Below the pieces are notes generated by a model that was not told where the DNA came from, made no database searches, and was given only the letters and a program-made list of their open reading frames with translations. 64,000 nt of DNA from Nitrospirales bacterium (GTDB lineage Bacteria; Nitrospirota; Nitrospiria; Nitrospirales; UBA8639), in assembly GCA_029261295.1 (NCBI GenBank), contig JAJDBP010000033.1:1-64000 (forward strand), read 5' to 3'. Position numbers and translations under genes: made by a program. Below, one piece after another: positions 1 to 62,077 of the stretch (the stretch's first letter is position 1; each line of letters opens with the position of its first letter).

Positions 1-82
1 TCATGGATTCGCCACGCTGCCAGCGATCCCAAATGTCGGCTCGTTGTGCAGGACTAAAATAGATGCGAGTTCGGTGTTTCAT
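1..82 (-). CDS. IS30-family transposase, N-terminal fragment (cut by window edge)
   Basis: An ATG at 82 on the minus strand opens a frame that stays open for 27 codons to the window edge. It begins MKHRTRIYFSPAQRADIWDR and continues WQRGESM. This is the typical start of IS30-family transposases, an N-terminal helix-turn-helix region that recognises the element ends. A GGAG ribosome site lies about 7 bases upstream, and an IS30-like terminal repeat follows at 113-141. The catalytic DDE domain would lie outside the window, so it cannot be judged whether the copy is intact. Confidence 0.75.
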   Translation of the reverse strand, partial: MKHRTRIYFSPAQRADIWDRWQRGESM

Positions 83-59432: not shown

Positions 59433-60727
59433 GTCAGCTATCAATTGCGCCGGCTACACGGCCACTGATTGGGACGGTGACAGTTCCTGGCGATAAATCC
59501 ATCACTCACCGAGCATTAATCCTTGGGGCATTGGCAGAAGGCTGCACTCGAATCACCGGATATTCCCAGGGAGAAGATTGCTTGAATACCTTAAGAGTCA
59601 TTCGGGATTTAGGGAGCGACGTTCAGGAATTTTCCGATGGTTTAGATGTAACGGGTAAAGGCCTTTGGGGGTTCACTGAACCATCAAAAGAGTTAGATTG
59701 TGGAAACTCTGGGACAGGGCTTCGACTATTGGCTGGTGTCCTTGCGGGACAAAAATTCTTCTCAATCCTCACTGGTGATGGGTCGTTACGAGGTCGGCCA
59801 ATGGGTCGAGTGGTTAAACCCTTGCGAGAAATGGGAGCGACTATTTCAGGTAGGCGGAATGGGGATTTAGCACCATTAGCTTTTCAAGGTGGCGCGCTTC
59901 AGGCCATAAAGTATGAATCTCCAGTTGCTAGTGCTCAGATTAAATCCTGCGTGCTACTTGCGGGACTCTTTGCCAAAGGGACTACCACTATTACCGAGCC
60001 GATGAAATCTCGAGATCATTCCGAGCGTATGCTGAAGTATTTGGGGGTTCCCCTGCAGGTTGAAGGTTGTAGTGTTCAGGTGGAAGGGCAAAAGTCTTTT
60101 GAGGGGAAACCTATCGTTGTTCCAGGTGATATTTCGGCTGCGGCATTTTTTCTGGTTGCCGCTTCAATCGTTCCTGACTCCGAAGTTTTGCTCAATGGAA
60201 TTGGGTTGAATCCAGAACGGACTGGAATCCTTGACGTACTTTCAGCCATGGGAGCTGACATTACCATTTTCAACGCACGGGATGAATCAGGTGAGCCGAT
60301 GGGTGATTTACGTGTTCGGGCTTCTCGCCTTAGGGGAACCACCATAGGGCCGGACCTGATTCCTAAGACCATAGATGAATTACCTATTCTCTGCGTGGCG
60401 GCTGCATTGGCAGAGGGAGAAACTAGAATTACCGGAGCGCAGGAATTACGAGTCAAGGAAACAGATCGCATTCATGCAATGGCAGTAGAATTGGCCAAAA
60501 TTGGAGTGTTGTTAGAAGAACAACCAGATGGTTTGGTCATTCAGGGGGGCTCCACCGTGTTTGGAGCCCAATGTCAAAGTTATGGGGATCACCGTGTGGT
60601 CATGTCATTGGCTATTGCGGGTTTAGTGGCAAAGGAGCCAGTTGTGATTGAGGATGTAGATTGCGTAGAAACATCATTCCCAGGATTTCATGGTAAGCTA
60701 TTGGATTTATTGACAAATTCCAGGTGA
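59429..60727 (+). CDS. aroA: EPSP synthase AroA
   Basis: AroA transfers enolpyruvate from PEP to shikimate 3-phosphate. The 432-residue protein has VPGDKSITHRALILGALAEG with the catalytic Lys, the LDCGNSGTGLRLLAGVLAGQ motif and GDGSLRGRPMGRVVKPLREM. It also has SAQIKSCVLLAGLFAKG, and KETDRI and GDHRVVMSLAIAGL late. The GNSGTG loop carries an Ala-free GTGLRL sequence. It shares four bases with tyrA, and its 3-prime end contains a strong promoter for cmk. Confidence 0.95.
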   Translation: MSQLSIAPATRPLIGTVTVPGDKSITHRALILGALAEGCTRITGYSQGEDCLNTLRVIRDLGSDVQEFSDGLDVTGKGLWGFTEPSKELDCGNSGTGLRLLAGVLAGQKFFSILTGDGSLRGRPMGRVVKPLREMGATISGRRNGDLAPLAFQGGALQAIKYESPVASAQIKSCVLLAGLFAKGTTTITEPMKSRDHSERMLKYLGVPLQVEGCSVQVEGQKSFEGKPIVVPGDISAAAFFLVAASIVPDSEVLLNGIGLNPERTGILDVLSAMGADITIFNARDESGEPMGDLRVRASRLRGTTIGPDLIPKTIDELPILCVAAALAEGETRITGAQELRVKETDRIHAMAVELAKIGVLLEEQPDGLVIQGGSTVFGAQCQSYGDHRVVMSLAIAGLVAKEPVVIEDVDCVETSFPGFHGKLLDLLTNSR

Positions 60728-60737
60728 CGTTTATAAT
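60710..60737 (+). promoter_or_regulatory. Consensus sigma70-type promoter for cmk-plsC-rpsA
   Basis: TTGACA at 60710-60715 and TATAAT at 60732-60737, 16 bases apart, both match the consensus perfectly. The -35 box lies inside the last codons of aroA. The start would be near 60744, giving a leader of about 27 bases before cmk. Confidence 0.8.
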
Positions 60738-60770
60738 AGGTCTGAAAATTTTTGTCATGAGGAGAAGAGA

Positions 60771-61451
60771 ATCGTTCAACCCCGTCGATTAGTTATTGCC
60801 ATTGACGGTCCAGCCGGGGTTGGAAAAAGTACAGTTTCCAAATGCTTGGCTGATCGTCTCTATTATGGCTATCTTGATACCGGAGCTCTCTATCGGGCCC
60901 TTGCTTGGAAAGTGCACCAAAGGCATATTGAGCCACACGACATTGATCTCATTGAAGCACTCCTATCGCAAACAAGTCTGAAATTAGTCGCTGACTCAAA
61001 TGGCTTTGCCATTAAAATTGATGGTCAGCTCATGGATCAAAAAGAACTTCGTTCCCCCCACGTTAGCCAATTGGCTTCATCGATAGCTGTCTTGCCGGTG
61101 GTGCGAGAATGGTTGCTTCCAATTCAACAAGAAGTTGGAAAAACTGGCGGAGTGGTAGCAGAAGGAAGGGATATGGGTACTCGAGTCTTCCCACAGGCGG
61201 ATATTAAATTTTTTTTGGAAGCAGACGTGAATGTTCGTGCTCGCCGTCGCCAGCAAGAAATGTCTGATAAGGGCAAGCCTGTTGAGTATGAAACAGTACG
61301 TGATGAAATGATCATGAGAGATACGCGAGACCAAAGTCGATCCATTGATCCTTTGCGCCCTTCTCCCGAAGCGATTAGGATCGAAACCTCTCAACAGTCA
61401 GTTGAAGAGGTCATTGTTCAGATGATGGGTAGGATTGCGGCCCGTTTGTGA
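60771..61451 (+). CDS. cmk: Cytidylate kinase with an apparent ATC start codon
   Basis: Cmk phosphorylates CMP and dCMP. From ATC 60771 the protein has 226 residues, normal for the family, with P-loop G13-P-A-G-V-G-K-S-T, YYGYLDTGALYRALAW, EGRDMGTRVFPQADIKFFL and RDTRDQSRSIDPLRP. No ATG, GTG or TTG is in frame upstream of the P-loop; the first is TTG 60846, inside the P-loop domain. ATC 60771 stands six bases after GAGGAG, an ideal distance. ATG 60757 is out of frame and stops after 11 codons. Either a rare ATC start or a one-base error near the start is implied. Confidence 0.88.
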   Translation: MVQPRRLVIAIDGPAGVGKSTVSKCLADRLYYGYLDTGALYRALAWKVHQRHIEPHDIDLIEALLSQTSLKLVADSNGFAIKIDGQLMDQKELRSPHVSQLASSIAVLPVVREWLLPIQQEVGKTGGVVAEGRDMGTRVFPQADIKFFLEADVNVRARRRQQEMSDKGKPVEYETVRDEMIMRDTRDQSRSIDPLRPSPEAIRIETSQQSVEEVIVQMMGRIAARL

Positions 61452-62077
61452 TTGGAGGAATGTATTGGGGGCTCTGGCTCCTCTTTCGATTTCTTGGCAG
61501 GTTATGTTTTCGTTTCCACATTGACGGCGAACAATTTTTCCCCAAAACTGGTGGGGTCATCGTTGCAGCAAATCATGCGAGTTTTTTAGATATTCCCTTA
61601 TTAGGGTGTGCCATTCCCCGTCGAGTGGTGTTTTTAGGGAGAGCAAACCTATTTCCTAATAAGTTAATAAGTTGGATTATTCAAAGGCTTGGATGGATTC
61701 CCCTTAAGACTCATCGATTGGATCGAAGGGCGTTTGGTCTAGCTCTTGAATACTTAAGGGAGGGAACACCCGTAGTTATTTTCCCCGAGGGCACTCGTAC
61801 TGAAGATGGCCAGCTGCAACTGGGAAAGCCAGGAATAGGATATTTGGTTGCAGAATCACAATGCCAGGTGATTCCTGCGTATATTTCTGGTACCTTTAAG
61901 GTTCTCCCTATTAGGGCTAAATGTCCGAGGCTGTTTCCCATATCAGTTTCTTTTGGAAAATCAATAGGTTTTCACAAAAGTGACATAGAGGATAAGAAAC
62001 AAGAATATGAACAAATCGGGCGATCAGTTATGGAACATATTGCTCAAGTTGGAGGCATGTCTTCTCCATACAAATGA
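61448..62077 (+). CDS. plsC: 1-acyl-sn-glycerol-3-phosphate acyltransferase PlsC
   Basis: PlsC makes phosphatidic acid at the inner membrane. The 209-residue protein has the acyltransferase box NHASFLDIP (H-x4-D), a second block with GWIPLKTHRLDRRA, the FPEGTRTEDGQLQLGKPG box, and VIPAYISGT. A short N-terminal hydrophobic helix is present. Start is GTG 61448, overlapping the cmk stop as GTGA. The cmk-plsC-rpsA order is common in several phyla. Confidence 0.93.
   Translation: MIGGMYWGLWLLFRFLGRLCFRFHIDGEQFFPKTGGVIVAANHASFLDIPLLGCAIPRRVVFLGRANLFPNKLISWIIQRLGWIPLKTHRLDRRAFGLALEYLREGTPVVIFPEGTRTEDGQLQLGKPGIGYLVAESQCQVIPAYISGTFKVLPIRAKCPRLFPISVSFGKSIGFHKSDIEDKKQEYEQIGRSVMEHIAQVGGMSSPYK

What the first reader, a model, noticed from the sequence alone, without database searches (positions are those of the whole stretch)
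60771..61451. cmk seems to start with ATC
The P-loop and everything upstream of TTG 60846 has no ATG, GTG or TTG in frame. ATC 60771 follows GAGGAG at ideal spacing and gives a standard-length protein behind a perfect promoter. Such rare starts are known mainly for infC and pcnB (AUU) and a few others, often with regulation by IF3. Gene callers would drop the catalytic P-loop.
Basis: partly seen in the sequence, partly recalled or inferred. Interest (0 to 1): 0.65.

Follow-up and report, generated by a model that had tools for sequence, protein, structure and literature searches.

The report
Kinase gene lacking a standard start
An essential nucleotide-making kinase gene lacks any usual start codon in nearly half of the examined species of one bacterial genus, yet keeps a ribosome-binding site just upstream, so its protein probably starts at an unconventional codon that gene finders miss.

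Summary
Observation confirmed: cmk (60714-61451, aroA-cmk-plsC-rpsA) has no in-frame ATG/GTG/TTG before TTG 60846, which lies behind the P-loop; a 12/12 sigma70-type promoter and GAGGAG precede ATC 60771. It is no sequencing slip. Of 17 genomes of the genus, 8 have no in-frame NTG before the P-loop, against 0 of 66 Nitrospirales loci outside it. One (L005) has no NTG in any frame upstream, which argues against a general frameshift. AGGAG is kept in 16 of 17.

ATC itself is not kept: ATC 3, ACC 4, GCC 8, GAC 1, AAC 1, and it changes like untranslated DNA. The next codon, GTT 60774 (9 nt behind GAGGAG), is GTT in 16 of 17; the exception, L004, also lost AGGAG and gained an in-frame GTG. My best reading is an SD-driven GUU start, acquired after the genus lost the older NTG start that overlapped the aroA stop; AUC 60771 is the main rival. 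The region is frozen at synonymous sites and may fold into a hairpin, but without covariation. No protein or RNA data were available; the start codon is inferred, not shown.

The parts
60710..60737 (+). sigma70-type promoter TTGACA-16-TATAAT, across the aroA end / old cmk N-terminus
   Evidence: 12/12; 12/12 in 17 of 17 genus rows
60725..60727 (+). aroA stop codon TGA; GTG 60724 overlaps it (GTGA), the place of the older cmk start, here in the wrong frame (stops at TAG 60790)
60757..60792 (+). out-of-frame ATG...TAG short frame overlapping the SD
   Evidence: the same ATG in 3 of 17 rows only
60759..60764 (+). Shine-Dalgarno-like GAGGAG
   Evidence: AGGAG in 16 of 17 genus rows
60771..60773 (+).
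60774..60776 (+). GTT, proposed start codon; spacing 9
   Evidence: GTT in 16 of 17; 0 of 14 comparable fourfold codons invariant
60769..60779 (+). 5' arm of a possible hairpin
   Evidence: 96.5% of cells paired, no covariation; the best single-sequence fold of own does not contain it
60802..60811 (+). 3' arm of the possible hairpin, frozen at synonymous sites
60774..61451 (+). cmk, (d)CMP kinase, as proposed (225 codons + stop); P-loop IDGPAGVGKST at 60801-60833
60846..61451 (+). what a standard gene caller would call (TTG start, P-loop missing)

Best explanation
Cmk in this genus is translated from a Shine-Dalgarno-driven, non-NTG start just behind GAGGAG; the codon used is most likely GUU 60774 (read by the ordinary fMet tRNA as a weak start), giving MQPRRLVIAIDGPAGVGKST. 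In many relatives cmk starts at an NTG that overlaps the aroA stop; in the ancestor of this genus an indel put that start out of frame, and an SD-like stretch already lying in the coding sequence (AAGGAG in the related genus g7) took over. A weak start may suit a kinase needed in small amounts on an mRNA whose strong promoter also serves rpsA. Shown: absence of NTG, the conserved SD, the conserved GTT, a non-coding pattern of change up to 60773. Inferred: use of GUU, its weakness, the history and the reason for it.
For: No in-frame NTG in 8 of 17 genus rows against 0 of 66 outside. AGGAG in 16 of 17 and GTT in 16 of 17; the single exception to both is L004, which alone has an in-frame GTG upstream of the SD. 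Codons -14..-10 change at positions 1,2,3 as 6,5,6 (non-coding); codon -10 as 4,3,0; codons 4..43 as 25,11,131. In the 10 rows without ATG/GTG at codon -3 and without L004, codons -9..-4 change as 0,1,5. No indel from SD to P-loop in 17 rows, but 20 or 21 bases between TATAAT and SD. L005 has no NTG in any frame between the aroA stop and the P-loop. GTT is invariant in the 16 rows where 0 of 14 comparable fourfold codons are. One initiator-type tRNA only, anticodon CAU. Precedents: sigR GTC start, IF3-repressed (PMC5472188, passages); AUU/AUA starts with extended SDs giving about 10% of AUG in poor medium (PMC13009471, section 10).
Against: The whole stretch from the SD to IDGP is frozen at the nucleotide level, so GTT's constancy may have another cause (CAA is 15 of 17, CGT at codon -6 14 of 17). 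GUU is not an NCBI table 11 start (recalled). SD spacing 9 to GTT is no better than 6 to ATC. Seven rows carry ATG/GTG/TTG at codon -3 and may start there. Over all 17 rows codons -9..-4 are less coding-like than the gene body (3,5,6 against 25,11,131; p 0.006). A conserved hairpin over the start, if real, would hinder initiation. No RNA or protein data.
Confidence: 0.48

Rival explanations
1. Start at AUC 60771 in this species, as infC of Streptomyces is reported to do; genus members with ACC/GCC/GAC/AAC there use something else.
For: AUC differs from AUG at one base and is a table 11 start (recalled); spacing 6 behind GAGGAG; ATC also in L002 and L003; ATC is given as the infC start of Streptomyces in PMC5472188 (passage).
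Against: 14 of 17 genus rows do not have ATC there; 7 changes at positions 1 and 2, 0 at 3; L005 in the same subclade has GCC with SD and GTT intact.
Confidence: 0.2
2. Start inside the first strand, at codon -3 or -2 (own GTT 60792 or ATT 60795), reached without the SD or by re-initiation after the short frame that ends at TAG 60790.
For: Codon -3 is ATG 4, GTG 2, TTG 1, CTG 2 of 17; in ATG/GTG lineages the upstream RRL decays: 5 changes at positions 1/2 and 0 at 3, against 3 and 7 elsewhere (Fisher 0.026; counts typed by hand).
Against: The SD would be 27-30 bases away, yet is kept; own has GTT there; RRL is kept in the rows without ATG/GTG; L005 has no short upstream frame with an NTG.
Confidence: 0.14
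3. Initiation fixed by SD position and RNA structure, almost regardless of codon (start-codon-free entry).
For: SD and flanks conserved while codon -10 is ATC/ACC/GCC/GAC/AAC; both arms of a possible hairpin frozen while part of the loop varies; the alignment folds better than 100 of 100 column shuffles for -60..30 and for -75..60.
Against: No covariation; for -45..24, 5 of 100 shuffles do as well, and only 9 of 17 single folds show the stem, own not among them; GTT itself is constant.
Confidence: 0.1
4. Programmed -1 frameshift from an upstream frame (own GTG 60724 or ATG 60757) into cmk.
For: An upstream frame 2 overlaps the cmk frame in own and most rows; AGGAG could act as an internal SD.
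Against: L005 has no NTG in any frame; L006 only a GTG in the third frame; L017's frame 2 is stopped at -59; 1-base indels upstream of the SD; no slippery heptamer seen by eye.
Confidence: 0.05
5. Assembly error or a decaying gene.
For: Most of the genus rows are fragmented assemblies.
Against: 8 assemblies agree; the gene body is under strong protein constraint (25,11,131); single copy in own.
Confidence: 0.03

Closest known systems
sigR of Streptomyces, GTC start repressed by IF3 (PMC5472188, passages read)
   Same: GUN codon that is not GUG, directly behind a strong SD; annotation picked another codon
   Different: Different gene and role; experimentally proven there, inferred here; GUU instead of GUC
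infC (ATT in E. coli, ATC in Streptomyces; PMC5472188, passage) and pcnB (AUU; title in the reference list of PMC13009471)
   Same: Rare start limiting expression
   Different: In this genus the AUC position is not kept. infC of this genus has an in-frame ATG
cvfC1 AUU and ccpN AUA of S. aureus (PMC13009471, section 10)
   Same: Conserved non-canonical start carried by a conserved strong SD
   Different: Their start codons differ from AUG at the third base only; GUU differs at two
Frame-shifted lambda cI rescued by a non-natural start (PMC6397469, abstract and section 6)
   Same: A gene that lost its frame is translated from an odd codon at RBS distance
   Different: A laboratory mutant over a short time; here a genus-wide natural case
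aroA-cmk coupled start (NTG overlapping the aroA stop) of other Nitrospirales
   Same: Same gene pair, same promoter position
   Different: Here that start is out of frame or gone

Membership tests
(d)CMP kinase, TIGR00017 / PF02224 | score above curated cut-off, full domain | tested here: met
   216.5 vs 135.55 bits, positions 3-214 of 217; 218.3 vs 26
(d)CMP kinase, TIGR00017 / PF02224 | P-loop present | tested here: met
   IDGP(A/S)GVGKST in 17 of 17 genus rows
Near-cognate AUU/AUC start (infC/pcnB type) | the AUU/AUC codon is conserved at the start | tested here: not met
   ATC in 3 of 17
Near-cognate AUU/AUC start (infC/pcnB type) | IF3-dependent repression | not testable with these tools
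   needs expression data
sigR-type GUN (not GUG) start | conserved GUY codon behind an SD | tested here: met
   GTT 16 of 17, AGGAG 16 of 17
sigR-type GUN (not GUG) start | no NTG alternative in frame | tested here: inconclusive
   none in 8 of 17; NTG at codon -3 in 7, at -4 in L011, upstream in L004
sigR-type GUN (not GUG) start | initiation at that codon shown by protein | not testable with these tools
   no proteome
Programmed -1 frameshift | an initiated upstream frame overlapping the downstream frame in all members | tested here: not met
   L005 none in any frame; L006 and L017 none in frame 2 reaching the overlap
NTGA-coupled aroA-cmk start | NTG in the cmk frame overlapping the aroA stop | tested here: not met
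   own GTG 60724 is in frame 2 and stops at 60790
Alternative initiator tRNA | tRNA with GGG/CCC anticodon stem and non-CAU anticodon | tested here: not met
   all 44 tRNA places of the genome examined; only one tRNA-Met(CAU) has the stem

The most novel reading that the evidence does not exclude
Start-codon-free initiation: in this genus the ribosome is placed on cmk by the SD plus a conserved hairpin and begins at whatever codon lies at the right distance (ATC, ACC, GCC, GAC or AAC), which would be natural bacterial initiation that does not read a start codon.
Probability: 0.1. Interest if true: 0.88.

Novelty: new variant of a known kind. Interest (0 to 1): 0.56.

Why it matters
If right, a household enzyme (essential in many bacteria, recalled) has been kept in a genus without a standard start codon, by a GUU start or something odder. 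It would add a natural test case for how far SD pairing can replace start-codon recognition, show how a gene survives loss of its start, and explain why gene finders would lose the catalytic P-loop of Cmk in these genomes.

Tried and rejected
One-base indel or misassembly: rejected, 17 rows without an indel from SD to P-loop. Alternative initiator tRNA: none. AUU-type infC in the genus: in-frame ATG in 16 of 16 readable rows (a first pattern found nothing). Known Rfam element: nothing significant in 60650-60950 (best E 0.82). A dispersed RNA element: model R1 finds in the own genome only the cmk site and one chance-level match (E 0.78); in the family (48 genomes) it finds all 17 genus rows and weak matches in other genera, mostly at the cmk place. 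A short hairpin bringing SD and codon -3 together: 3 cells change on both sides, but 6 of 17 rows break that pair. Papers on a cmk start, on Nitrospira starts and on genes without a start codon: searches gave listings without a matching case; the absence claim rests on these and on 29, 36, 42 and 62. The E. coli measurement of all 64 codons (Hecht 2017) is not held; I know it only from citations. The SD scan of 53 long frames of the window was too rough to set an optimum spacing.

Rows dropped: L013 (contig starts inside cmk), L042 and L050 (too little upstream DNA) were left out of the start tables; G013 and G017 gave no cmk match; L031-L033 repeat G012, G011 and G038; L034-L040 are outside Nitrospirales and were printed only. 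Start regions were compared for 83 loci (17 + 66); one search found cmk in 191 of 196 Nitrospirales genomes, so most were not read.

Full report
What is there. The window lies in a 4.06-Mb genome whose nearest named relatives are Nitrospirales MAGs (L031 and L032 match genomes G012 and G011 in contig length). The genes run aroF-like, tyrA-like (names from reading the translations, not tested), aroA, cmk, plsC-like, rpsA (aroA, cmk and rpsA over the curated cut-offs of TIGR01356, TIGR00017 and TIGR00717; the plsC-like protein reaches 72.6 bits of TIGR00530 against a cut-off of 102.95). The cmk frame is open from 60714 to 61451 and holds no ATG, GTG or TTG before TTG 60846. The P-loop IDGPAGVGKST (60801-60833) lies before that TTG.

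Codon numbering below: codon 0 is the I of IDGP (60801 in the window); codon -10 is ATC 60771, codon -9 is GTT 60774, codon -3 is GTT 60792.

Relatives. Of 20 genus genomes 18 have cmk; 17 include the N-terminus. In 8 of these 17 (own, L002, L003, L005, L006, L007, L008, L014) there is no in-frame NTG between the preceding stop and IDGP; the other nine have it at codon -3 (ATG 4, GTG 2, TTG 1), at -4 (TTG, L011) or upstream of the SD (GTG, L004). Outside the genus 66 of 66 loci have at least one NTG by the same lenient rule. In many of those the first NTG overlaps the aroA stop codon (for example L060 ATGA, L020 GTGA, L019 TTGA), so I take that as the older arrangement; others, such as g2 and g10, have GTG or TTG 13 codons before IDGP, and g12 GTG four codons before it. 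In the genus of the window that older start is out of frame or gone (own GTG 60724: frame 2, stop at 60790).

Why not a frameshift. L005 has no NTG in any frame between the aroA stop and the P-loop; L006 has only a GTG in the third frame; L017's frame 2 is stopped at -59. The distance from TATAAT to the SD is 20 or 21 bases among the five rows of the own subclade, so upstream frames are not kept. From the SD to the P-loop there is no indel in 17 rows.

Where coding begins. On trees from codons 4 onward, codons -14..-10 change at positions 1,2,3 as 6,5,6; codons 4..43 as 25,11,131 (Fisher for the contrast 0.0004). Codon -10 alone changes 4,3,0. Codons -9..-4 change 3,5,6 in all rows, which is less coding-like than the gene body (p 0.006); five of the eight changes at positions 1 and 2 sit in lineages that carry ATG or GTG at codon -3 (L010/L015, L016, L017/L018), and in the ten rows without those, without L012 and without L004 the figures are 0,1,5. 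This points to translation from about codon -9 in the rows that lack a later NTG. The numbers are small and the rows related.

Which codon. At -10 the genus has ATC 3, ACC 4, GCC 8, GAC 1, AAC 1: no start-codon conservation. At -9 it has GTT 16, GCT 1. The GCT row, L004, is also the only one with a broken SD (GAGGCG) and the only one with an in-frame GTG upstream of it. None of 14 fourfold codons in codons 4..59 that keep their amino acid in at least 16 rows is invariant. Begun at GTT, nine residues precede the I of IDGP; E. coli Cmk as I recall it (MTAIAPVITIDG) has nine as well, and the solved chain 1cke aligns residue 7 to query residue 8, which agrees. So GUU 60774 is my first choice and AUC 60771 my second; together about 0.7.

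A frozen stretch. Synonymous diversity is near zero at codons -11, -9..-6, -4 and 0..3 (codon -5, CGA/CGG, and codons -2 and -1 vary) but 0.39 on average in the rest; genera g2 and g9 do not show this at IDGP. The frozen parts can pair (60769-60779 with 60802-60811; 96.5% of cells, slid controls 16-47%), but no pair changes on both sides, shuffle controls range from 0 to 5 of 100 depending on the stretch, and the own sequence alone folds otherwise. I treat the hairpin as possible, not shown.

Machinery. Of 44 tRNA places in the genome, only one tRNA-Met(CAU) has the initiator stem (one search lists 52 entries because neighbouring loci overlap and some tRNAs appear twice). infC has an in-frame ATG (RMTR...) in 16 of 16 readable genus rows.

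Promoter logic. The 12/12 promoter is present in 17 of 17 genus rows. In several other genera it lies downstream of cmk's own start, so that its transcript would carry no cmk NTG at all (L019, L025, L028, L072, L087, L088, transcription start assumed 7 bases behind TATAAT). A promoter for plsC-rpsA that expresses cmk weakly or not at all would fit both that and a weak GUU start; this is inference.

Literature. Read: PMC5472188 (passages), PMC13009471 (passages and section 10), PMC11497404 (passages: GUG 58.4%, UUG 29.8%, CUG 0.86% of AUG, cited there), PMC6397469 (abstract and section 6), PMC9845219 and PMC3711429 (passages). What I saw of them does not report this case. No match for a conserved GUU start was found in the searches named in Tried and rejected; that is a limited library.

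Noticed in passing
L019, L025, L028, L072, L087, L088 (aroA-cmk junctions): A consensus TTGACA/TATAAT promoter lies inside the cmk reading frame, downstream of its NTG start, so the promoter's transcript would lack any cmk start codon; a possible order-wide way of uncoupling rpsA from cmk.
   Followed up: partly
L056 (genus g3), about 45 bases before IDGP: GGGGGGGAGGAG followed by TTGCG ATC CTG: another strong SD with a non-NTG codon at the same place (codon -9), the only in-frame NTG being TTG at -4; this genome's cmk is split over two distant sites, so the assembly is doubtful.
   Followed up: no
L010, L012, L015, L016, L017, L018: ATG or GTG at codon -3 inside the first strand, with decay of the RRL stretch before it in five of the six: possible new starts replacing the odd one, although the SD is kept.
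   Followed up: partly
window 60724-60792, frame 2: Remnant of the older cmk N-terminus: GTG overlapping the aroA stop, open to TAG 60790.
   Followed up: yes
window 61448-61462: The plsC-like gene may start at GTG overlapping the cmk stop (GTGA), or at ATG 61460.
   Followed up: no
window, 53 long frames: Most long frames show no strong SD at a plausible start in a rough scan, which makes the GAGGAG before cmk stand out.
   Followed up: partly
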